DNA from: Candidatus Electrothrix scaldis | GTDB lineage: Bacteria; Desulfobacterota; Desulfobulbia; Desulfobulbales; Desulfobulbaceae | NCBI GenBank assembly: GCA_033584155.1 | Contig: CP138355.1 | Span: forward strand, 4,553,501 to 4,617,500 | Reading direction: 5' to 3' | DNA: 64,000 nucleotides | Shown: piece by piece, positions 14,444 to 64,000 of the stretch | Numbering within the stretch: position 1 is the first letter of the stretch | Layout of the letters: each line of letters begins with the position of its first letter | The notes under the pieces: model-generated | The model's database searches: none | What the model was told of the DNA's origin: nothing | What the model saw: only the letters and a program-made list of their open reading frames with translations | Program-made: the position numbers and the translations under genes

Positions 14444-14479
14444 TTTCCGAAGTATGTTGTACGACGCTATGTAGCCAAG

Positions 14480-14509
14480 GCCGGGACGGAATTTTCTGTT
14501 CCGGCTTTT
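14480..14509 (+). terminator. Terminator after hemB
   Basis: GCCGGGACG pairs with TGTTCCGGC over nine positions including G-U pairs, followed by TTTT. It marks the end of the conserved block before the AT-rich defence genes. Confidence 0.7.
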
Positions 14510-14595
14510 CCAGTTACAGCAGATGGCTAATGTGATATATTACGCAAACATATTTCACTTTAAGCGTTGCATTACGAACTATAAAGGGCCGTCCA

Positions 14596-15801
14596 ATGCC
14601 ACGATCAGCCGACTATACAATTCAAGGGTTCTTATATCAGTTTAACAAGACAATTCTGGAAATTCTAAAGGCAGAACCTGATGCCAGTGTCAATATTGAA
14701 GGATTGATTGAGGATATCGAAATTGTTTCATCGAAAAAGATGACAGGAATACAATGTAAATATCACGAAGCTGCTAAAAAATTTACGCAAAGTGCTATTT
14801 ACAAACCATTACTACAGATGCTCAAGCACTTTTCGAGAAACCCTGATCATAATGTTGAATACGTACTATTCGCTCATTTTCCGGGTACTGGGGAAGAATG
14901 CCCAATCATTGGAAAACAAGAATGCGAAGATGCCTTGGCATCTAAAGATAAAAAATTTAAAGATATTATAGGTGAGATACCTGACCATGTTAATCTGGAC
15001 GAATTTCTCCATCGATTTAAGATGGAGTTTGGTCCAAACTACGACAGTCTTGTCAAGGAAGTTATTCTTTCCTTGAAGGACAACAATATTCCTTCGGAAG
15101 AAATCGAAGCACTTGCTTACCCGAATGCGATTCACATTATTGCCTGTATCTCTATCTTACATGATCCCAGCCGCCGACAAATCACAAAAACACAGTTCTT
15201 AGATCAATTAAACGATATTCGGACTACAGTAATTTCTCGCTGGACGTTAGCCCTGAGTACTCGAAAAAAAATACTTGATGCCCGCCGTAAGCAACTAAAG
15301 GAACATCTTAACGTCAATTCTCGTTGCCGTTATTTTGTTATCGACCCTGATAACTTCAGAGATTTTGACACAAGATTCGTTCTCTTCCTGAACAGCTACC
15401 TTCAAAAATATCATTATAAGCCAACCCATATCAATCCCCCTATCTTTTGTGTCTGCGCATCACGAGAAGACATTCAAAATATCCGAAGCCGACTCTACCA
15501 AAAAAATATTCGGACAACAGATGGATATGTTGGTGGGCAATTTGAGGAATCCCATTTTTTCCGTGAACCCTGTTCAAGAAAAATTAATGGAAGCTCTATT
15601 CATAGGGAATTTGATCTTCGAATTATAGATTGGGAAAGACACGGAGCAGTTATAAACAAAAAGAAGTGCGATGATCTTTTTGTTTTTGGAAATCTAAACT
15701 TAGATTCGATAGAGACAAGCGATGTGAATGTGGAAGAGCTAACAAGTACAACTATCAAAGAAATTGAATATGTTATGGGGATAAGTAATGTCTGCGACTA
15801 A
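14596..15801 (+). CDS. DUF4297/Cap4-like PD-(D/E)xK nuclease of a HerA defence pair
   Basis: 401 aa, no signal or membrane segment, AT-rich compared with hemB. The first 75 residues have the pattern GFLYQFNKTILEIL, then IEGLIEDIEI, then GIQCKYHE, with candidate catalytic residues Glu35, Asp40/Glu42, Gln53 and Lys55. This is the layout of DUF4297/Cap4-type nuclease domains (PD-(D/E)xK with a QxK motif). The remaining 300 residues are not recognised. Its last 14 bases overlap the HerA gene, so the two are made together. HerA with a DUF4297-type nuclease is a known anti-phage pairing; assignment here is by motif and context only. Confidence 0.65.
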   Translation: MPRSADYTIQGFLYQFNKTILEILKAEPDASVNIEGLIEDIEIVSSKKMTGIQCKYHEAAKKFTQSAIYKPLLQMLKHFSRNPDHNVEYVLFAHFPGTGEECPIIGKQECEDALASKDKKFKDIIGEIPDHVNLDEFLHRFKMEFGPNYDSLVKEVILSLKDNNIPSEEIEALAYPNAIHIIACISILHDPSRRQITKTQFLDQLNDIRTTVISRWTLALSTRKKILDARRKQLKEHLNVNSRCRYFVIDPDNFRDFDTRFVLFLNSYLQKYHYKPTHINPPIFCVCASREDIQNIRSRLYQKNIRTTDGYVGGQFEESHFFREPCSRKINGSSIHREFDLRIIDWERHGAVINKKKCDDLFVFGNLNLDSIETSDVNVEELTSTTIKEIEYVMGISNVCD

Positions 15802-17566
15802 AATCGGCCAAGTTTTATCTTGTTCACCAGGTGCTATTATTGTCACTATAGAAAACTTGGAGAAATTCGAAGCTCATAAAACAGAATTACAAGTTGGTCG
15901 GTATTTATGTATTGAACAAGGTAACCACGATTACACTATTGCTTCAATTCGTAATATTCGTGGTGTGTCCGGTGAAGACAAAGAAAATGGAAAGCTTAAC
16001 TGGGAATTTCAAATTGAATGCCAAGCTATCGGGACTCTTGTTGACAAAGAACGCTTCGAGCGTGCCAGCCTGCTCCTGCCTGTACCAACAGAATTTGTAT
16101 ACACCGCTGACACCGAAACTCTTGATAAACTTTTTGCAGAAGACAGCGATTATCAGTTTCCTCTTGGAGTACTTTCATTTAACAACTCTATACCACTAAA
16201 AGTACATGGAGATCGTTTTTTTAGTAAGCATGTCGCTGTGGTTGGGTCAACTGGCTCAGGCAAGTCATGCTCTGTTGCAAACATTCTTCATGAAGTGGTT
16301 GGTATTAGAGAAGAAAAAAACGTTAATGCCAGCAAACAAAATAACTCACATATAGTTATATTCGATATCCATGATGAATATTCAGCAGCATTCACTCTTT
16401 CGGACGCTCAATCATTCACCTTAAATCGACTCGATATTGATACCTTACAGCTTCCGTATTGGCTGATGAATTCCGAAGAGCTGGAGAGCATGTTCATTGA
16501 AAGTAATGAACAAAATTCACATAACCAAGTCAGTCAATTCAAGTTGGCTGTCATTTTAAACAAGGAGCGTTATAATCCCTCAGTCAAAGAGATGACCTAT
16601 GACACCCCTGTATACTTTTCTATTGAGGAAGTATATCGTTACATTGAAAATATGAACAGGGAAGTGATTGGACGCCTTGAAGGAGAAAATCTACCGAAAT
16701 TGGCAGACGGAACGCTAGTTCATGATCGCAAAGAACATTATTTTGACAAATTATGTAACTTTATTCCAACATCCAACGCAAAAGCAGATAAAGCAACGAA
16801 TGGACCTTTTAACGGGCAATTCAATCGATTTGTTTCTAGGCTAGAAAGTAGATTACAAGATAAACGCTTACGTTTTCTGTTACATCCTCAAAAAAATGAT
16901 GGAACCTCGTTTCAAACGGATGATTTTGATGACATCCTCAAACAATTCATAGGATACTTAAACAAAGCAAACGTGACCGTTGTTGACCTCAGCGGTATTC
17001 CTTTTGAGGTCTTAAGCATCACCGTCAGCCTCGTTTCACGTCTCATTTTTGATTTCTGTTTTCATTACTCCAAATTGCGTCATGAGCAAGAGCTGCTCAA
17101 TGATGTCCCAGTAATGTTAGTTTGTGAAGAAGCACATAACTATATCCCTCAACGTGATGAAGTAGCATATCGTTCTTCGCGAAAATCTTTGGAACGAATA
17201 GCTAAAGAAGGGCGTAAATATGGGTTAAGCTTGATGGTTGTAAGTCAAAGGCCATCTGAAGTCTCTGAAACCATTTTTGCACAATGTAATAACTTCATCG
17301 CATTAAGACTTACTAATATTGCTGATCAAAATTATGTACGTAGACTCTTCCCTGACAACTCAAACGGAATCACTGATATTCTCCCCAATCTCTCTCCTGG
17401 AGAATGCGTGATTGTCGGCGACGCTGTCTTGTTACCAACAGTTGTCCAAATGCCGTTGCCTAAGCCATCCCCTCATTCACAAAGCGTTTGTTTTCATAAG
17501 GAGTGGACAGTTCCTTGGCGTGATATAACTTTTTCGGATGTTATCAAACGTTGGAGAAAGGAATAA
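15788..17566 (+). CDS. HerA-type hexameric ATPase/DNA translocase
   Basis: 592 aa. N-terminal HAS-barrel-like domain (about 1-120), then the HerA/FtsK-type RecA fold with Walker A VGSTGSGKS at 152-160, Walker B VMLVCEEAHNY at 443-452 with acidic pair 447-448, and the downstream ERIAKEGRKYGLSLMVVSQRPSE region in pieces (ARKYG-type, VVSQRPSE) containing the sensor and arginine-finger segment. In defence operons HerA assembles as a hexamer with a nuclease or Sir2 partner. The partner here is the overlapping upstream nuclease. GGGGATAAGTA before the ATG is a good ribosome site inside the upstream gene. AT-rich, as is its partner. Confidence 0.88.
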   Translation: MSATKIGQVLSCSPGAIIVTIENLEKFEAHKTELQVGRYLCIEQGNHDYTIASIRNIRGVSGEDKENGKLNWEFQIECQAIGTLVDKERFERASLLLPVPTEFVYTADTETLDKLFAEDSDYQFPLGVLSFNNSIPLKVHGDRFFSKHVAVVGSTGSGKSCSVANILHEVVGIREEKNVNASKQNNSHIVIFDIHDEYSAAFTLSDAQSFTLNRLDIDTLQLPYWLMNSEELESMFIESNEQNSHNQVSQFKLAVILNKERYNPSVKEMTYDTPVYFSIEEVYRYIENMNREVIGRLEGENLPKLADGTLVHDRKEHYFDKLCNFIPTSNAKADKATNGPFNGQFNRFVSRLESRLQDKRLRFLLHPQKNDGTSFQTDDFDDILKQFIGYLNKANVTVVDLSGIPFEVLSITVSLVSRLIFDFCFHYSKLRHEQELLNDVPVMLVCEEAHNYIPQRDEVAYRSSRKSLERIAKEGRKYGLSLMVVSQRPSEVSETIFAQCNNFIALRLTNIADQNYVRRLFPDNSNGITDILPNLSPGECVIVGDAVLLPTVVQMPLPKPSPHSQSVCFHKEWTVPWRDITFSDVIKRWRKE

Positions 17567-17621
17567 TTTCCTTATCAAAGTCAGACGAAAGATATCATTC
17601 CCCCTCTAAGAAAAGAAATTT

Positions 17622-18866
17622 ATGCGCAAAACAGAACTCCTTGAAATAATCCACAACGGCGAGAACTCCGGCGTAGAGTTCAAACGGGATGACATCCGCC
17701 CGGAGCAGCTGGCAAAAGAGATTGTCGCCCTAGCAAATCTCAAGGGCGGATATATCCTGATCGGAATAGAAGACGACGGCACCGTCTCCGGCATCAAACG
17801 CCCAGACATCCAGGAATGGGTGCTGAACGTCTTCCGGGATAAAGTACATCCTCATATCATCCCATTTTACGAGGAAATAGAAATTGATGAAAGAGGCAAA
17901 GTCGCTGTAATCACCCTTTCCCCCGGCATTGCCAAACCCTATGTACTCCGGCATAACGGTCGTGAAGACGTGTACATTCGCATGGGCGACCGGTCCGAAC
18001 TCGCCTCACGGGAGCAGCAGGTTCGTCTTTTTGAAAGCGGCGGTATGCTCCACGTTGAAACCCTGCCCGTTGCCGGAACCTCAATAGATTCCCTGGACCT
18101 GGATCGGCTCAACTTCTATCTTGCCTCAATCATTGAAGACCCGGAAGTACCGAGCAACCAAGAACAGTGGATCGAACGTCTCCTGGGCCTTGGCCTGATG
18201 GCGGAAGACGGACTGGGTAATAAGGTTTGTTCCATTGCCGGGCTGGTCTGCTTCGGCATCCGTCCAAGGCAATACCTACCCCAAGCCGGACTGCGGGTCA
18301 TGGCCTTTACCGGCGGGGACAAGGAATATCAGGCCCGTCTGGACACCGTGCTTGACGGGCCGCTGGTGGGGCGCTGGCGCATGGCGAATAAACGCCGGGA
18401 ACTGGTGGATCAGGGGATAATCGAACAGTTCTCAGCAGCGATCCTTCCTTTTATCTCCTGCGAAGACGATGACATCGACGAAAACATGCACCGGGGCAAA
18501 GAGTTTTTCTACCCCATGCAGGCGGTCCGGGAGACGGTAATCAATGCCTTGGCCCATCGAGACTGGTCGCGGTCCGTGGATATTGAGGTCAGTGGCTATG
18601 CAGACCGACTGGAGATCATCAGTCCGGGAGCCCTGCAAAACTCCATGACTATCGCCAAGATGATCGCCGGTCAACGCTCTCCCCGCAATCCCCTGATCAT
18701 GGAGATTCTGCGCGATTATGGCTACGTTGACGCCAGAGGCATGGGTATACGCACCAAGGTTATCCCTTTAATGCGCCAGCATAACGGGGTGGAACCTATT
18801 TTCGAGGCTAACGAAGACTATCTGAAAACCACCCTGCCCAGGGGAAATAACCAGGATGAAAGCTGA
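17622..18866 (+). CDS. Schlafen-type AlbA_2 domain protein with C-terminal ATPase-like domain
   Basis: 414 aa. N-terminal AlbA_2 (Schlafen core) domain: ENSGVEFKRDDIRPEQLAKEI in pieces (GVEFKRD near 16-22; ALANLKGGYILIGIEDDG near 38-55). Middle region unrecognised; C-terminal part (VRETVINALAHRDWS near 303, then DRLEIISPG near 330) is the HATPase_c_4 type module usual in these proteins. They act as predicted nucleic-acid-binding regulators or defence effectors. It begins 56 bases after herA but has clearly higher GC, so it may be an independent gene. The DUF4139 gene follows 22 bases later. Confidence 0.8.
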   Translation: MRKTELLEIIHNGENSGVEFKRDDIRPEQLAKEIVALANLKGGYILIGIEDDGTVSGIKRPDIQEWVLNVFRDKVHPHIIPFYEEIEIDERGKVAVITLSPGIAKPYVLRHNGREDVYIRMGDRSELASREQQVRLFESGGMLHVETLPVAGTSIDSLDLDRLNFYLASIIEDPEVPSNQEQWIERLLGLGLMAEDGLGNKVCSIAGLVCFGIRPRQYLPQAGLRVMAFTGGDKEYQARLDTVLDGPLVGRWRMANKRRELVDQGIIEQFSAAILPFISCEDDDIDENMHRGKEFFYPMQAVRETVINALAHRDWSRSVDIEVSGYADRLEIISPGALQNSMTIAKMIAGQRSPRNPLIMEILRDYGYVDARGMGIRTKVIPLMRQHNGVEPIFEANEDYLKTTLPRGNNQDES

Positions 18867-21708: not shown

Positions 21709-21819
21709 CTAGTGCTAAGTCATGACTAAAGTTTAGGGTTAGCACCTTCAGACCAAATCGAAAGACTGAACAATTATGGAGTAGATCAACCCTAAATTTT
21801 AGCTTTTACAGAGCACTAG
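21709..21819. mobile_element. 111-bp palindromic MITE-like element at the 3' end of the SecB-like gene
   Basis: Outer arms CTAGTGCT (21709-21716) and AGCACTAG (21812-21819) are perfect. After an 11-base diverged spacer, the inner arms AAAGTTTAGGGTT and AACCCTAAATTTT match over 12 of 13. The total is a long imperfect palindrome, typical of a small MITE or a bidirectional terminator. The minus-strand gene's stop codon TAG (21816-21818) lies inside the outer arm, so the element ends that reading frame. No clear target duplication was seen. Confidence 0.55.
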
Positions 21820-22307
21820 TTAATCACCTTTACTTCGATGTCTTTAAGCGCATCTTCAGTTAATTTGTGCAAATTAATTAACGGAAATATGAAAGGAGTA
21901 AAACCTGCGTTAGCCAATAATGACGTTATAGTAGAACGCAAATAAGGCAGTAGCAAAACAGGAAAATGATTTTTTACTATTTTCTCTTCTAGTCCAGCTT
22001 CAAGCCGCTCATCTGACACTTGAAAAAGGCCAGCTATTCCAGCAGATAGCGAGATTGAAGATTCTGACTCTCCATCTGATCTTTCATTGTCAGCTTTCAG
22101 TTCAATTTTAATATCAAGCCCCGCTACGTAACTTTTTTCCTGAGAGAAGAAGGATGGTTGTCTAATAGAGAAAACAATATCCCACATGTCAGCAGGCAGA
22201 TTTCTGGTACTAGCCAACAAGGCCAGATCTGGTTTGATATCAAATTGAAGTCTGTCAACCTTGTATGATACGAACTGAAATTGTGATGTTATGCTGCTAA
22301 TGCCCAT
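21816..22307 (-). CDS. SecB-like chaperone of a toxin-antitoxin-chaperone operon (CmdC-like)
   Basis: 163 aa. The C-terminal half (LLPYLRSTITSLLANAGF and PFIFPLINLHKL) is the SecB family core; the N-terminal half is less conserved. SecB-like chaperones encoded beside toxin-antitoxin pairs protect an unstable antitoxin so that the toxin stays neutralised. Its start overlaps the antitoxin gene by 19 bases on the same strand, showing a single operon. The final codons fall at the edge of a palindromic element that supplies the stop, so the tail may differ from the ancestral one. General SecB is less likely because of the context. Confidence 0.8.
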   Translation of the reverse strand: MGISSITSQFQFVSYKVDRLQFDIKPDLALLASTRNLPADMWDIVFSIRQPSFFSQEKSYVAGLDIKIELKADNERSDGESESSISLSAGIAGLFQVSDERLEAGLEEKIVKNHFPVLLLPYLRSTITSLLANAGFTPFIFPLINLHKLTEDALKDIEVKVIN

Positions 22308-22573
22308 AATGGTTCAGTCGTTACAGAGTAATCATTAGTAGAAGACGAATCCACTGTAAAACCCGAAGGTATAGAGGAAATCATACGCAATTTATTGTCA
22401 TAACGATTGGTTATTTTTCCACACTCATCGAATGAATAAAGCTCTTTCATACTTTTATATACATCCCCTTCGGTACGTGTTTCCAGAAGAGCTTTAAAAG
22501 CCTCAGAGTCCATCTTGCTCAGCTTGTCAAAAACTCGTTTAGCTGCTGCCTTTACCTTCTCGCTGTTTTTCAT
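22289..22573 (-). CDS. Antitoxin of a toxin-antitoxin-chaperone operon (CmdA-like)
   Basis: 94 aa, no family recognised. The N-terminal half is a charged helical segment (KVKAAAKRVFDKLSKMD), the rest is low in structure, and the end is hydrophobic: EPLWALAA. A C-terminal hydrophobic tail with an aromatic residue is what chaperone-addiction (ChAD) sequences look like in SecB-dependent antitoxins. It overlaps the toxin gene by 35 bases upstream and the SecB-like gene by 19 bases downstream. The antitoxin role is inferred from this arrangement. Confidence 0.6.
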   Translation of the reverse strand: MKNSEKVKAAAKRVFDKLSKMDSEAFKALLETRTEGDVYKSMKELYSFDECGKITNRYDNKLRMISSIPSGFTVDSSSTNDYSVTTEPLWALAA

Positions 22574-23126
22574 TTTTCACCCCCACGTTTTCCAACGTTT
22601 TAGCTCCATTTATCAGAATGCATTGCGAATCTCTTGCTACATAACATAGCGGAGACCCGGCAAGCTGAGTAGGGTAGCAGTTTGGTAACGCTTTAGTTGG
22701 TGCATAAGCACGAACTTTATATAGCTTAATGATTACATCAAGCTCTTTTTCCATTAGCTCAATAAACAAATCATAAAATTTTTCACTGCATTCGCGTGAA
22801 TCCTCAGCATTATGCTGTTTGATAAGATTAAGGAATATGCTTTTTACTTCATCTGATTCAATATCAAGATATTGCTCAGGTAACACATCAAATGATGCAG
22901 TTATAACAACACATCTTTTATCTGGGTCTTTACTGAACGTCCCTGCTTTAATGCATTTTAAATACCACCCTACAGCAAGTTCCTCTGCGTAAGCAGATTT
23001 AACCCAAAAATATGCGCCTGCTCCGCGTAAACCAGAATTACGACATTTAAATCCATCTGAACCTATTGATTCGTAGCGTGATACAGTTGTCCCATGTGTT
23101 CCAACTAAGTCCAATGATCCATTCAT
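22539..23126 (-). CDS. ADP-ribosyltransferase-like toxin (CmdT-like)
   Basis: 195 aa. The N-terminus reads VGTHGTTVSRYESI then GLRGAGAYFW, matching the H...Y core of PARP/diphtheria-toxin-type ADP-ribosyltransferases, with His11 and Tyr39 as NAD-binding candidates. The third catalytic residue cannot be placed with certainty. An ART, a small antitoxin and a SecB-like chaperone in this order is the composition of CmdTAC, an anti-phage system whose toxin modifies mRNA. The ATG at 23126 has no clear ribosome site. A possible promoter on the minus strand is TATAAT at 23237-23242 with a weak -35 (TACTTG, 23260-23265, spacer 17). Confidence 0.65.
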   Translation of the reverse strand: MNGSLDLVGTHGTTVSRYESIGSDGFKCRNSGLRGAGAYFWVKSAYAEELAVGWYLKCIKAGTFSKDPDKRCVVITASFDVLPEQYLDIESDEVKSIFLNLIKQHNAEDSRECSEKFYDLFIELMEKELDVIIKLYKVRAYAPTKALPNCYPTQLAGSPLCYVARDSQCILINGAKTLENVGVKNEKQREGKGSS

Positions 23127-34693: not shown

Positions 34694-37600
34694 CTATTTT
34701 TTACCTTTCTTCGCTGGCTTTCCTCGATTACCACCGCAACCAGACTGAGCAGCTGCGGAAACAATCTCGTTCTTTTCCGCTTCTGTGATCAATCCTGCCG
34801 CAAGGAAACTCCTTGCAGTCCTGGCGACAGTAGAAACATACGCACCGTGATTCTTCCACTCGTTATCTGTTCCTCTCTGCCCTTCACACGGGCAAAGTTG
34901 AGCAAGCGAGCAACCAGTCGCATCAACGACATCACCGGGCGCAGTTTCCGGGCATTGATCACTCAAATCGGCAACGGAATCTCCATCATCGTCCTCATCG
35001 CAGATATCCCCTTCACCATCTCCATCCCAGTCGGCCTGATCAGGATTGGCAAGCAACGGACAGTTATCCGATATATCAGGGATGCCATCTGCATCCTGAT
35101 CACTCAGGACAAAAGTTGCCGTAACCTCGCAGTCGCCAATAATTTCGCCAGTGGTGTAGGTGTTGCCATCGAGAGTTCCGTTGCAGCCTACAACAGAGGC
35201 AATAACGTACCAAGTATCCGGTGTGACTATGAAGCTGGCTGTTTGACCGTAATCCACTATCTGCTCCGCATCAGGGCTGATACTACCGTGCTCGCCTGCT
35301 GAAGGCGTGACCATATATCTGGTGAGTACAAAATGAGCAGTCACCTCTTTGTGTTCCGACATGGTCACCGTACAGGTTCTGGCGGCGGCATTGGTTGCAT
35401 CGCAGCCGCTCCATGAAGAAAAGCTCGTATTTGCGCTACCTGCTACTGGAGCGGTCAACGTGATAACAGTTCCGCTGGGAATGTTGGTTTTGCTGTAGTT
35501 GGTTATGCCACTATACGCGGAAGGATTGCCTGTGATTGCGACTCCAGATATACCTGACGAATTGACAGAAAGGCTCCAAGTTACAGCAGCAGTTCTGCTC
35601 CAGCAATTGGCATTTTGATCGTTGATGTCCACCCAGAAACGGGAGTCATTAGAGATTTGACCCGGTGCGTAGAATCCCCAACCTCCTGAGCGGGTATTTT
35701 GGGGCCATGTGTCGCCGTAAAAGTTATTCTCATCCATTCCATAAACCCAGCGACCGTCATGGAACTCAGCGACACGATATCCCGGACCAAGTTGCGCCTC
35801 GCAGTATGCATTGACATCATCCAGGGTGGCGAACGCATTGCCCTGCACAGGTGTTGTCAATTCGGCAGTTCCCTCAACCCAACCTGTATAATATTCTTTA
35901 TTCATACCGCCACCAGCAGGAGGAGGTTCATAAGGCGGTCGAGCTGAACCATCCACTTGCACACACAGCACCGGTAATAGAACCGAACAGGAGGTATCGC
36001 CCTGATAAGGATTACAGGGACCTCGATTCGGACCAATTTCGCCATAACAATCCACCTTGGTGATATCAAGGTCAGCATTATAGCTGTAAACTCCCCAAGT
36101 CATCCCATTTCTGGATGTATGCGGTGTAAAACTGGCCGTTACCTCACAGTCTTCGCTGATAGGAGCAGTGGTGTAGGTGCTGCCGCTTAGGGTTCCGCCG
36201 CAACCTTCCACTTTGTCTACGATGTAGCCTGAGTCAGACAACACTGTGAAGGTCATGGTTGCGCCATGATTTACTGACTGTGGTGTGTCTGGATTGATAC
36301 TACCGCCGGTGCCTGCTGAAGGAGTCACGATGTATGATGAGCAATTACCATCTGCTGGTATGATCTGTTCTGGACTTTCCGACCAAGCCGCTCCGTCGCC
36401 TAATTGGCCCGACCAATTGTTTCCCCAAGCCCAGAGAGTACCGTCGTCCTTCAGAGCAACTGTATGAGCAGCCCCAGCAACGGCAGCAGTCCAGTCTGTG
36501 TCTTCTACCTGCACTGGGCGGCGTTTGCCAACAACAGTACCGTCGTCTAACTGTCCGTAATGATTCCTTCCCCAAGCCCAGAGAGCACCATCATTCTCCA
36601 GAGCAACTGTATGATAATTTCCAGCAGAGACAGCTGTCCAGTCGTTACCCTCCACCTGTACGGGGCTGCTTTTGTTAACTGTTGAGCCATCGCCTAACTG
36701 TCCGTAATCATTTCTCCCCCAAGCCCAGAGAGTACGGTCATCCTTCAAAGCAACTACATAACCATATCCTGTAACGACAGAAGTCCATTCAGTGCCTTCC
36801 ACTTGCACAGGGCTGCGTTTGCTGACGGTAGTACCGTCGCCCAACTGGCCAGCCCCGTTGGCTCCCCAAGCCCAGAGAGTTCCATCATCCTTCAGAGCGA
36901 CTGTATGGTAATCTCCAGCAGAGACAGCTGTCCAGCCGTTACCCTCCACCTGTACGGGGCTGCTTTTATTAACTGTTGTGCCGTCTCCCAGCTGGCCTGA
37001 CCAGTTGGTGCCCCATGCCCAGAGAGTTCCGTCATCCTTCAGCGCAACTGTATGAACATATCCAGCAGCGACGGCCATCCATCCGCTGCCTTCCACCTGC
37101 ACAGGACGGCTTTTGCTAACTTCTGTACCATCGCCTAGCTGGCCGTAATAATTCCCCCCCCATGCCCAGAGGGTTCCGTCATCCTTTAACGCAACTGTGT
37201 GACTCCACCCAGCGGCAACCGTCTTCCAGTCAGCGTCTATGTCAACCTGCACAGGGCTGCGTTTACTGCCGGTAGTACCGTCTCCCAACTGGCCTTCTTT
37301 GTTGTATCCCCATGCCCAGAGAGTTCCGTCATCTTTCAACGCGACTGTATGATTCCCCCCAGCAGCAATGCTCTTCCAGTCGGCGTCTATGCCAACCTGA
37401 ACCGAGCTATTTCTACCACTTACTATTCCGTCGCCTAACCGACCGTTTGCGCGGCTTCCCCAAGCCCAAAGTCTATTATTATCCTTCAGCGCGACTGTAT
37501 GAAAAGCCCCAGCGGCAATAGTCTTCCAATCAGTCTCTGCGCCAACCTGCAACGGGCTGCTTATACTAGCTGTTGTACTATTACCTAGCTGGCCGTGCCT

Positions 37601-38551
37601 ATTGTCTCCCCATGCCCAAAGGCTGCCGTCACCCTTCAGCGCAACTGTATGAAAATATCCCGCAGTAACAGTCTTCCAATCAGTGTCTGTGCCAACCTGC
37701 AACGGACTGCGTTTTCTGACGGTAGTACCGTCTCCCAACTGACCTTCTTCGTTATCTCCCCATGCCCATAAGGTTCCGTTAGCCTTCAGCGCAACTGTAT
37801 GAAAAGCTCCAGCGACGACAGTCGTCCAACTACTGCCTGCCACCTGCACTGGACTATATTGATTAGCTGTTGAGTTGTTACCTAACTGGCCGTGGGGGCT
37901 ACCTCCCCATGCCCAAAGCGTACCGTCATCTTTCAAGGCAACTGTATGATAATATCCAGCAGATACAGTCTTCCAATCAGTATCTGTACCAATCTGCAAC
38001 GGGCTGCTTTTATCACTTTTCCTACCGTTACCTAGCTGACCGTAATTATTTCTCCCCCAAGCCCAGAGACTGCCATCATCCTTCAGCGCAACTGTATGAA
38101 AATATCCAGAGGCTATGCTCTTCCAGTCAGAGTCTGTGCCGACCTGCAACGGACTACTTTTGTTGACAGTAGTACCATCACCTAGCTGACCGTGATCATT
38201 TCTCCCCCAAGCCCAGAGGCTGCCGTCTTCCTTCAAGGCCACAGTATGACTATATCCAGCAGATACGATTCTCCAGTCACTATCTGTGCCGATTTGCACG
38301 GGGCTATTTTTACTAACAACTGTACCATCGCCCAGCTGACCGTATCCGTTGTATCCCCACGCCCAGAGAGTGCCATCACATTTGACAATTACGGTGTGGC
38401 TGTATCCAGCCGACACCTGCGCCACCCCAGCCCATGCTCCACCGCCCCAAACAAGTAGCGTAAACAAACAAACCACCCGGACAAGCAAGAGCATTTGCCA
38501 GCAATCCTTATCCGACGCCGTACAATTGTTAAGAAACAATCGCTTTCTCAT
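34694..38551 (-). CDS. Secreted protein with fourteen RCC1 repeats, InlB-like and TSP3 modules
   Basis: 1285 aa, ATG with AAGGAGGAGGA upstream. A hydrophobic signal segment lies near residues 20-41 (ending GGAWAG). Residues about 45-745 hold 14 RCC1 repeats, each with [15 protein letters not shown] and GQLGDGT strands, which is enough for two seven-bladed propellers. Then come InlB-like repeats ([14 protein letters not shown]), a region of unknown fold (about 830-980) and a TSP3 pair before a C-terminal helical region ending [12 protein letters not shown]. It has the same exported, two-propeller design as the two FG-GAP genes beside it. The repeats are very similar to each other. Function unknown; it may bind a surface or ligand. 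Confidence 0.85.
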
Positions 38552-42741: not shown

Positions 42742-43284
42742 CAGAGGGAGCAGTCCTACTGCAGGTTAGTTCCACGTTACAAATCCCACAAAAAAAACAT
42801 TCCTCCTCTATCCTCCTGCTTATAGTCAGTATCTCCTCAAAACCAACCACCTCCCCATAGCAAACCTGCACCGTTCAGCATCGTCATAGGTATCACGAAA
42901 AAATCGTTATACGTATAACGGCAAATTCGTTATACGTATCACGGCAAGTTCGTTATACCTATCACGGTAAGTTCGTTATTAGTATAACGGCAGATTCATT
43001 ATACCTATAACGACCAATTCGCATCGAGTATCACGGCCCATCTCCCTATAAAATCCGCGCTCAGCTCCCACTCCACAGAGCGATTCTCCGATGCCCGACA
43101 CCAGCTTCATGATTACATCTCTGTATATCGACTGCTATTTTCCTATTTACTTTTATAATTAAGATGGTAAAAAGTTGACCGTATACAAAAATATGCAAAA
43201 ATGTATTCGAGTCATCTACTCAAGTTTATCGTTTATTGTCCCCAACTGCCGATCCGGGATGAGGGCTTATGTGGAGCAACTATT
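42742..43284. other. Intergenic region with a palindrome array
   Basis: About 540 bases. The left third has no signal that I can interpret. The middle holds a seven-unit 23-bp array (next entry). The right part is AT-rich leader of the PAS protein. The reading frame that starts at 43201 is a possible longer start of that gene, but ATG 43285 is better supported. Confidence 0.5.
42882..43042. repeat. Seven tandem 23-bp units with palindromic cores
   Basis: Units start at 42882, 42905, 42928, 42951, 42974, 42997 and 43020, each exactly 23 bases. The clearest unit contains CGTTATACGTATAACG, a perfect 16-base palindrome, followed by about 7 bases ending ATT or GTT. The outer units are degenerate. 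Equal spacing with a palindromic core fits an array of binding sites for a dimeric protein, or iterons. There are no spacers of the CRISPR kind. Confidence 0.7.
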
Positions 43285-62379: not shown

Positions 62380-64000
62380 CTATTCGACAAATGTGACAGG
62401 CACAGATTGACACCACCACGAACTGCATGTTTGCTGCACCTGAAAATGCAGATGCGCGCCACAAACCCATCCACTTAATCCAACCTGTCCTATCACCTGT
62501 CCTTTGCTTACGCTAGAGCCAACATTAACAGTGACAGAGTCTGCCTGCAAATGCAAATACAGGGTAGATTCTCCGTTACCATGATCAATCACAACGTAAT
62601 TTGCGTCGTTAGCATATGCGCTGTCGCAGCCAGACAACGTAGAATCTTGTTTGATTCTACTTACAACTCCTCCTGCTGATGCTACAACACTAGTTCCTAC
62701 GGGCATTGCAAAATCATAGGCATACGCCCCTATTCCTGTATGACTACCGGTATTGTTGCCTTGACTTATACTGTACCCTCCTTGATGCGGATAACCATAA
62801 GTAACTGATTGTGACAGCATGGCTTTAAGATCGTAACTACCCGCTTGATACCCATACACACTAATATACCAATCTGTATTTCCAGTATTTGTCAAAGTAC
62901 AGCTTTCTGATAATGTACTGCCCATATATGGTCTACAGTCATAGGAAGACAAGGTAGGCATAGCCCCCTGTTTGACATATAAATCAACATCCGCAGATAA
63001 GTTCGTCAGATCAACCAGCAGCTGCGTATCAGAAGACGATGCTTCAATTTTATAGTTTGCCCAAGTTTGGTACTGAACAAAATCGGAAACCTGCTCGTCA
63101 GATGTAAGTATCGTTATATTACTACTAGTACTTCCAGATAAGGTTGCTTCAAGATCGAAGTTCCCTGCCTGATACCCATACACACTGATATACCATTCTG
63201 TTGCACCACTATTAGTCAGGGTGCAACTTTCCGAAGCTGTATTGCCGTGATAGGGTCTGCAATCATAGGAGGTCAGGGTTGGTTCGGCTCCCTGCTGAAC
63301 ATAGAGATCAAGATCAGCGGAAAGACCGCTCATATCAACCTGTAATTCTGTATCAGAGGACGAAGAGACTATCTTGTATTTCTTCCACGCATGATAGCCT
63401 GCTGAATCAGAAACCTGCTGGCCAGATGTAAGTTCAGTTACAGAACTGCTTCCGCTTCCTGACAGAGTCGCCTCAAGGTCGAAGCTACCTGCCTGATATC
63501 CATACACGCTGATGTACCAGGTTGTTTCTCCACTGTTGGGCAGAGTACAGCTTTCAGAGGATGTCCCTCCGTTATATGGTCTACATGCGTAAGACGATAA
63601 AGTCGGTTCCGCTCCCTGCTGAACATAAAGATCCATATCTGCGGAAAGGCCGCTCATAGCAACCTGCAATTCCGTATCAGAAGACGAAGAGACTATCTTG
63701 TACTTCTTCCAGGCATGATAGCCCGCTGAATCAGAAACCTGCTGGCCAGATGTAAGTTCGGTTACAGAACTGCTTCCGATTCCTGACAGAGTCGCCATAA
63801 GATCAAAGCTACCTGCCTGATATCCATATACGCTGATGTACCAGGTTGTTTCTCCACTGTTGGGCAGAGTACAGCTTTCAGAAGACGTACTACCAAGATA
63901 TGGCCTACATGCGTAAGACGATAAAGTCGGTTCCGCTCCCTGCTGAACATAGAGATCAAGATCTGCGGAAAGACCGCTCATAGCAACCTGCAATTCCGTA
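62380..64000 (-). CDS. PPC-repeat protein with C-terminal M23 peptidase domain (5' end outside the window)
   Basis: Partial; the reading frame continues beyond 64000, so the start and any signal peptide are missing. The seen part has at least four PPC (pre-peptidase C-terminal) domains of about 110 aa, each with SADLDLYVQQGAEPTL, a Cys pair (CRPY...SCTL) and WYISVYGYQAGSFDL. Repeats differ at few positions, so they expanded recently. The last part (near residues 400-537 of the seen portion) is an M23 metallopeptidase: GAYAYDFAMPVG, IDHGNGESTLYLHL and GAHLHFQVQ supply zinc ligands (Asp and two His). Likely a secreted endopeptidase acting on peptidoglycan or a protein. Confidence 0.85.
   Translation of the reverse strand, partial: TELQVAMSGLSADLDLYVQQGAEPTLSSYACRPYLGSTSSESCTLPNSGETTWYISVYGYQAGSFDLMATLSGIGSSSVTELTSGQQVSDSAGYHAWKKYKIVSSSSDTELQVAMSGLSADMDLYVQQGAEPTLSSYACRPYNGGTSSESCTLPNSGETTWYISVYGYQAGSFDLEATLSGSGSSSVTELTSGQQVSDSAGYHAWKKYKIVSSSSDTELQVDMSGLSADLDLYVQQGAEPTLTSYDCRPYHGNTASESCTLTNSGATEWYISVYGYQAGNFDLEATLSGSTSSNITILTSDEQVSDFVQYQTWANYKIEASSSDTQLLVDLTNLSADVDLYVKQGAMPTLSSYDCRPYMGSTLSESCTLTNTGNTDWYISVYGYQAGSYDLKAMLSQSVTYGYPHQGGYSISQGNNTGSHTGIGAYAYDFAMPVGTSVVASAGGVVSRIKQDSTLSGCDSAYANDANYVVIDHGNGESTLYLHLQADSVTVNVGSSVSKGQVIGQVGLSGWVCGAHLHFQVQQTCSSWWCQSVPVTFVE

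What the first reader, a model, noticed from the sequence alone, without database searches (positions are those of the whole stretch)
14596..17566. HerA translocase overlapping a DUF4297-like nuclease
Two AT-rich genes overlap by 14 bases. The first has a GIQCKYHE-type QxK motif after an acidic residue set, and the second a full HerA ATPase. This is a two-gene anti-phage design known in other forms, but the 300-residue C-terminal part of the nuclease is not one I recognise.
Basis: partly seen in the sequence, partly recalled or inferred. Interest (0 to 1): 0.6.

Follow-up and report, generated by a model that had tools for sequence, protein, structure and literature searches.

The report
Known DUF4297-HerA anti-phage gene pair
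Two overlapping genes encode a DNA-cutting enzyme and a ring-shaped DNA pump that match an already described bacterial self-sacrifice defence against viruses, so the find is a sound but ordinary new copy of a known system.

Summary
In detail: two AT-rich ORFs at 14596-15801 and 15788-17566 overlap by 14 bases and encode a Cap4/DUF4297-type PD-(D/E)xK nuclease and a HerA ATPase. Both proteins match, nearly end to end, the solved DUF4297-HerA anti-phage complexes (PDB 9c1m, 8ziq; more distantly 8xav), and these are the best PDB matches of the predicted nuclease fold. Catalytic residues (D40, Q53, K55; HerA K159, E447/E448, R476/K477) map onto those of the studied E. coli system. In 79 of 80 relatives examined a HerA gene follows; the exception is a contig end. 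No other neighbour cluster covers more than 7 of the 80 loci, and only 2 of 73 genomes of the host family carry the nuclease. So this is an accessory defence module, not a repair operon: a new member of a known kind, on the 9c1m/8ziq branch. Two small extras: the hemB-to-AlbA_2 slot holds three different contents in four congeners, and against its one close relative the pair is a mosaic whose most divergent stretch spans the published contact surface of the two proteins.

The parts
14596..15801 (+). DUF4297/Cap4-type PD-(D/E)xK nuclease gene, 401 aa
   Evidence: PADLOC DUF4297 7.9e-48; PDB 9c1m_A 3.5e-76, 8ziq_A 6e-75; fold
14713..14760 (+). catalytic residues D40 (14713-14715), Q53 (14752-14754), K55 (14758-14760) of the nuclease
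   Evidence: same letters and numbers as in E. coli DUF4297; identical in 48 of 48 rows of A3
15259..15798 (+). DUF4297 C-terminal assembly domain (about residues 222-401; the border is mapped from published G224)
   Evidence: alignment to 9c1m and 8ziq; PMC11291478
15788..17566 (+). HerA hexameric ATPase/translocase gene, 592 aa
   Evidence: PADLOC HerA 9.2e-170; PDB 9c1m_M 2.1e-225, 8ziq_M 5.2e-221
15788..15801 (+). 14-base overlap of the two genes
   Evidence: overlap of the same length in 16 of the 79 relatives with a HerA ORF downstream
16244..16267 (+). HerA Walker A GSTGSGKS (K159, S160)
17126..17131 (+). HerA E447/E448 (E. coli E426/E427)
17213..17218 (+). HerA R476/K477, the trans-acting finger (E. 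coli R455/K456)

Best explanation
This is a chromosomal copy of the DUF4297-HerA abortive-infection system. Expected mechanism, by homology: six HerA subunits form a ring and twelve DUF4297 subunits stack on its HAS face in two layers through their C-terminal domains. Assembly makes HerA planar and ATPase-competent and pairs the upper nuclease domains, which then cut double-stranded DNA of phage and host without specificity, so that the infected cell dies. Shown here: the two genes, their order and overlap, the predicted fold of the nuclease, the conserved active-site residues, the conserved pairing and the patchy distribution. Inferred from studied relatives: 12:6 stoichiometry, activation by assembly, dsDNA cleavage and cell death. 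The trigger is unknown here, and the 2025 review calls it unclear for the studied systems.
For: Near full-length matches of both proteins to solved DUF4297-HerA complexes. PADLOC models for both partners. Predicted structure with mean pLDDT 88.6 and the PD-(D/E)xK order of elements; its first 18 PDB matches come from DUF4297-HerA entries or DUF4297 itself. E39, D40, Q53, K55 identical in 48 of 48 aligned sequences, and HerA active-site residues map to those described in E. coli. HerA ORF downstream in 79 of 80 relatives. Nuclease absent from 71 of 73 genomes of the family, and from 38 of the 40 that are at least 90% complete and at most 5% contaminated. AT-rich island between GC-richer genes. 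Plasmid relatives beside methyltransferase and helicase, AbiE or integrating-element genes.
Against: No expression, activity or phage data for this copy. It scores below the curated cut-offs of NF042945 (183 of 300 bits), NF042944 (620 of 850) and Pfam Cap4_nuclease (22.3 of 26.2); the E. coli pair that bears those NCBI names is 28.7% and 43.2% identical. Of the two DNA-contacting basic residues of the E. coli HerA insertion, R284 aligns with V293 here and K287 with R296. Whole-chain TM-scores to the full-length solved chains of the same branch are only 0.46-0.69; I take this as a different angle between the two domains, which pTM 0.65 would allow.
Confidence: 0.94

Rival explanations
1. A three-gene system: the AlbA_2/HATPase_c_4 gene at 17622-18866, 55 bases downstream on the same strand, belongs to the module as a regulator or third effector.
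For: Same strand, 55-base gap; the gene also follows the pair in G059.
Against: It follows other genes in the same slot in G060 and G063; homologues occur in 8 of 8 genomes of the genus, of which only 2 have the pair; it differs in G+C; no AlbA_2-like cluster is among the neighbour clusters present in 4 or more of 80 loci; none is annotated next to the pair in the five plasmid regions of this branch that I opened.
Confidence: 0.04
2. A DNA-repair pair of the HerA-NurA kind that resects DNA ends as a housekeeping function.
For: HerA is also the motor of archaeal HerA-NurA; the archaeal HerA NCBIfam models match at 4.1e-36 and 3.9e-33.
Against: No NurA match in Pfam, PADLOC or NCBIfam; HerA scores far below the archaeal cut-offs (125 of 970 and 115 of 800 bits); found in 2 of 73 family genomes; no conserved repair neighbours.
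Confidence: 0.02
3. A silent or decaying copy of the system that no longer defends.
For: The locus is recombining: mosaic against G059 and variable contents in congeners; the host's expression of it is unknown.
Against: Both frames are open over their full length with active-site residues intact; dN/dS between G000 and G059 is 0.21 and 0.08, so amino-acid changes are held back.
Confidence: 0.05

Closest known systems
HerA-DUF of PDB 9c1m/9c1n/9c5x (by title Rish et al. 2025, Mol Cell; seen only in a reference list, and as PDB titles; the pairing of paper and entries is my inference)
   Same: Both proteins nearly full length: nuclease 3.5e-76, HerA 2.1e-225; best structural match
   Different: That nuclease chain is 436 aa, with extra residues between its positions 119 and 154; another host
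DUF4297-HerA of PDB 8ziq/8zir/8zit (by title Tang et al. 2025, Mol Cell; reference list only; pairing inferred). By eye the aligned letters agree with the Agrobacterium pAt pair L043, also 397 aa
   Same: Matches 6e-75 and 5.2e-221; same gene order with overlap in pAt
   Different: 36.7% (nuclease) and 57.1% (HerA) identity between the pAt pair and the window
E. coli DUF4297-HerA, PDB 8xau-8xay (An et al. 2024, PMC11291478: abstract, all Results, first part of Methods, found passages)
   Same: Same active-site residues at the same numbers in the nuclease; same HerA active-site residues
   Different: The other branch: 28.7% and 43.2% identity, measured on the pair of E. coli KCJ3K291; 8xav_G at 4.4e-23
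Sir2-HerA (table and text in PMC12198126)
   Same: HerA hexamer under a two-layered twelve-fold effector stack
   Different: Effector is Sir2, not a PD-(D/E)xK nuclease
LmuA of Lamassu, Avs3, Cap4 of CBASS, Hachiman
   Same: Appear in the fold search after the DUF4297 chains
   Different: Whole-chain TM-scores by query 0.23-0.37; other partners and sensing parts (recalled)

Membership tests
DUF4297-HerA defence system | N-terminal Cap4-like PD-(D/E)xK nuclease with intact catalytic residues | tested here: met
   Predicted fold; E39/D40/Q53/K55 as in E. coli and in 48 of 48 rows
DUF4297-HerA defence system | DUF4297 C-terminal assembly domain | tested here: met
   Aligned to residue 395-396 of 401 with 9c1m and 8ziq
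DUF4297-HerA defence system | Adjacent HerA with Walker motifs, finger residues and a C-terminal hook | tested here: met
   the hook is judged only from the alignment with 9c1m_M, which runs to residue 592 of 592 here
DUF4297-HerA defence system | Curated NCBIfam equivalog cut-offs of NF042945 and NF042944 | tested here: not met
   183 of 300 and 620 of 850 bits. In the plasmid table this name goes to the more distant hits (8 of 19), not to the 11 of 19 nearer ones, so I read it as a test of branch, not of system
DUF4297-HerA defence system | 12:6 complex, activated by assembly | not testable with these tools
   No prediction of complexes on hand; known for relatives
DUF4297-HerA defence system | Protection from phage by abortive infection | not testable with these tools
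   Needs a bench test; shown for the E. coli pair
HerA-NurA repair pair | NurA nuclease next to HerA | tested here: not met
   No NurA match for the partner in Pfam, PADLOC or NCBIfam
CBASS Cap4 | SAVED receptor domain behind the nuclease | tested here: not met
   No SAVED match; the C-terminal part aligns with DUF4297
CBASS Cap4 | Cyclase gene nearby | tested here: inconclusive
   Only the AlbA_2 gene and the ORF at 22539-23126 were scanned in both Pfam and PADLOC, neither with a cyclase match; other neighbours were not scanned

The most novel reading that the evidence does not exclude
The docking surface of the system (DUF4297 C-terminal domain plus HerA HAS domain, encoded side by side across the gene overlap) is exchanged between alleles as one cassette, separately from the nuclease domain, perhaps to escape phage inhibitors that act on assembly.
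Probability: 0.13. Interest if true: 0.4.

Novelty: new member of a known kind. Interest (0 to 1): 0.17.

Why it matters
It adds a lineage to a structurally solved defence system. It also shows that the branch to which this copy and two of the three solved sequence sets belong goes largely unnamed in annotation: the 11 nearest plasmid hits of 19 (36-50% identity) are all labelled 'hypothetical protein'. The mosaic against G059 suggests a testable idea about how the assembly surface evolves. Otherwise it is ordinary.

Tried and rejected
Rejected: the C-terminal part as a new domain. Rejected: a conserved repair operon; besides the pair, five neighbour clusters reach 4 or more of 80 loci, the largest 7. 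By my reading of the first letters (recalled, not scanned) they look like a serine recombinase, an RNA methyltransferase, a small transposase, a tyrosine integrase and one that I cannot name. Rejected: the AlbA_2 gene as a conserved third part.

Led nowhere or gave little: a genome-contig scan with the single protein found no relative; the same collection scanned with alignment A1 gave 115 relatives, of which the tool kept 80. A phylum search with NF042945 found the window copy and two weak N-terminal matches, one in G104 and one elsewhere in this genome. No phage record matched; two viral contigs did and were not examined further. In E. coli, a query from Cedecea neteri (L060) found only a 365-base piece of herA in 9 of 5426 genomes, so alleles within E. 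coli could not be used to test the mosaic idea. Selection on the interface alone was set aside as the cause of the mosaic, because synonymous divergence rises together with the amino-acid changes. The paper of Rish et al. is not held; that of Tang et al. was not looked up. The window found no Rfam family but one tRNA.

Full report
What is there. The ORFs 14596-15801 (401 aa) and 15788-17566 (592 aa) are on the + strand and share 14 bases. They are AT-rich against both neighbours (37.7% and 39.2% G+C; hemB 57%, AlbA_2 gene 54%). Upstream lie ntrY/ntrX-like genes and hemB (names recalled from the translations, not scanned). Downstream, 55 bases after the HerA stop, comes a gene with SLFN_AlbA_2 and HATPase_c_4 domains.

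What it is. The first protein matches PADLOC's DUF4297 model at 7.9e-48 and three solved DUF4297 sequences: 9c1m_A 3.5e-76, 8ziq_A 6e-75, 8xav_G 4.4e-23. The second matches PADLOC's HerA at 9.2e-170 and 9c1m_M at 2.1e-225, 8ziq_M at 5.2e-221 and 8xau_A at 2.8e-128. The alignments run nearly end to end, for 9c1m_A in two pieces. Curated cut-offs are not reached: Pfam Cap4_nuclease 22.3 of 26.2 bits, NF042945 183 of 300, NF042944 620 of 850. The E. coli pair, which carries those NCBI names, is 28.7% and 43.2% identical to the window pair over the aligned residues, while the Agrobacterium pAt pair is 36.7% and 57.1% identical. I conclude that the window belongs to the 9c1m/8ziq branch of the same system; I built no tree.

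Structure. An AlphaFold2 model from 48 aligned sequences has mean pLDDT 88.6 and pTM 0.65. Its N-terminal order, helix 3-25, strands 31-34, 41-44 and 49-56, helix 65-81, strand 87-94, is that of a PD-(D/E)xK core (established knowledge), with Q53 and K55 on the third strand. The first 18 PDB matches come from DUF4297-HerA entries or DUF4297 alone; later ones include LmuA, Hachiman, Avs3 and Cap4. Whole-chain TM-scores by query to the full-length chains of 9c1m, 8ziq, 8zir and 8zit are 0.46-0.69 with rmsd 7.0-15.7, and 0.51 to the E. coli crystal structure 8zgi; partial chains of 167-180 residues of the same entries and 9c5x fit at 1.8-2.0 A with TM-scores by target of 0.89-0.91. I read the difference as domain placement (inference).

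Active sites. Residues E39, D40, Q53 and K55 of the E. coli nuclease fall on the same letters and numbers here. HerA K157, S158, E426, E427, R455 and K456 fall on K159, S160, E447, E448, R476 and K477; R284 falls on V293 and K287 on R296. In the E. coli system the mutants D40A/Q53A/K55A and HerA K157A lose defence. E35, E39, D40, Q53 and K55 are identical in 48 of 48 sequences of alignment A3, which holds the window and 47 of the 80 loci, chosen by me for clean ends. Of 63 nearly full-length HerA ORFs from the 80 loci, 59 have GSTGSGKS, 62 EEAH and 63 EGRK.

Distribution and pairing. The nuclease is found in 2 of 73 genomes of the host family (2 of 40 among the more complete ones), both of one genus. 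HerA matches 5 of 73; in the three outside the genus identity is 25-37%. In a phylum sample of 297 genomes the NF042945 model found the window copy and two weak N-terminal matches. Yet 115 relatives came from the GTDB collection, 80 kept, over many phyla by their record titles. A HerA ORF lies within 1500 bases downstream in 79 of 80; the remaining one, L085, ends with its contig. In 68 of the 79 the two ORFs overlap, in 64 of these by 4, 8, 11, 14 or 17 bases. In 11 they do not: seven gaps of 0-12 bases, one of 168 (L054, HerA ORF short at its start), and three of 289-1154 bases where the nuclease ORF is short (L112, L115, L120). Apart from the pair, no neighbour cluster covers more than 7 of 80 loci, though contig ends shorten many flanks. 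Of 19 plasmid records with a match I opened six: five of the window's branch, all with a HerA-like ATP-binding protein gene directly downstream, and one of the other branch (L127), where transposase genes follow the nuclease. This is the pattern of an accessory defence module, not of a housekeeping operon.

How it most likely works. From PMC11291478 (abstract, all Results, first part of Methods and found passages) and the review PMC12198126 (whole text): twelve DUF4297 and six HerA subunits form a complex of about 1 MDa; assembly makes HerA planar and pairs the upper nuclease domains; the complex cuts dsDNA without specificity for phage DNA, and infected E. coli cells lose phage and host DNA. 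The review calls the trigger unclear. For the window pair all of this is inference by homology.

The slot. Between hemB and the AlbA_2 gene, G000 and G059 carry the pair. G060 carries a gene for a 701-aa ATPase (AAA_15 2.5e-20; PADLOC AriA 6.6e-20, Old 5.9e-19); G063 carries a gene for an 814-aa protein with an AAA domain and only one PADLOC match, at 0.012. The intervals are 3178, 3408, 3101 and 2659 bases. In G064 hemB is followed by a GDSL lipase gene, and the full-length AlbA_2 gene lies on another contig. G058 and G061 could not be judged, because hemB and the AlbA_2 gene lie on different contigs, and G062 gave no hemB match. So there are three contents in the four genomes with both borders in place.

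The mosaic. Compared with G059, the window has 4 differences in the first 700 aligned columns after hemB (0.6%), 19.3% in 15144-16124 and 8.9% from there to the HerA stop. The gain in log-likelihood from two breakpoints is 96.7, against at most 10.9 in 100 shuffles searched on a coarser grid. Per 40 codons dS is 0-0.04 in DUF4297 residues 1-160, 0.2-0.5 in 161-280, 0.96-1.15 in 281-400, 0.5-0.9 in HerA 1-120, 0.14-0.36 in 121-320 and 0.4-1.1 from there to the end. Synonymous sites diverge with the rest, so recombination is the better reading. The most divergent segment covers the DUF4297 C-terminal domain and the HerA HAS domain, which contact each other in the E. coli complex. Against over-reading: it is one comparison of two genomes; the later part of HerA is also more divergent than the flanks, and the AlbA_2 gene is uneven too (dS 0.3-0.7 in its first 200 codons, then 0-0.13); and the nuclease end (dS 0-0.04) lies below the flanking genes (ntrY 0.10, ntrX 0.09, hemB 0.19), so it may be the nuclease end that was exchanged recently. 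I did not search the literature for such exchanges, beyond a word search in PMC11291478, where 'recombin' does not occur.

Verdict. A correct observation, a mostly correct interpretation, and a known kind of system. Interest is low; the mosaic and the variable slot are the points a specialist might follow.

Noticed in passing
window 14444-17621, with L006, L031, L032: The interval between hemB and the AlbA_2 gene holds three different contents in four congeners: DUF4297-HerA (two genomes), an AAA_15/OLD-like ATPase gene, and a gene for an 814-aa AAA-domain protein. A likely exchange slot for defence genes.
   Followed up: partly
window 15144-16124: Most divergent stretch of a mosaic against G059, spanning the DUF4297 C-terminal domain and the HerA HAS domain.
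   Followed up: partly
window 17622-18866: AlbA_2/HATPase_c_4 gene downstream of the pair; it also follows the other inserts in G060 and G063, and a 38-residue match lies on the hemB contig of G064, whose full copy is on another contig.
   Followed up: partly
L005 (same genome, outside the window): A 988-aa open frame that matches the first 80 positions of the DUF4297 model weakly (2.3e-4), perhaps another Cap4-type nuclease fusion.
   Followed up: no
window 42881-43037: Tandem array of a 23-bp unit that is itself largely palindromic by eye.
   Followed up: no
window 36393-38378: Tandem repeats of about 147-150 bases inside a 1285-aa ORF on the - strand.
   Followed up: no
window 63081-64000: Tandem repeats of 324 bases running to the window end, largely within a 537-aa ORF on the - strand.
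   Followed up: no
window 21816-23126: AT-rich stretch with three short ORFs on the - strand, one with a SecB match just over the Pfam cut-off (28.7 of 26 bits), the other two with no Pfam family at or over its cut-off. Possibly a SecB-linked toxin-antitoxin-like unit (guess).
   Followed up: no
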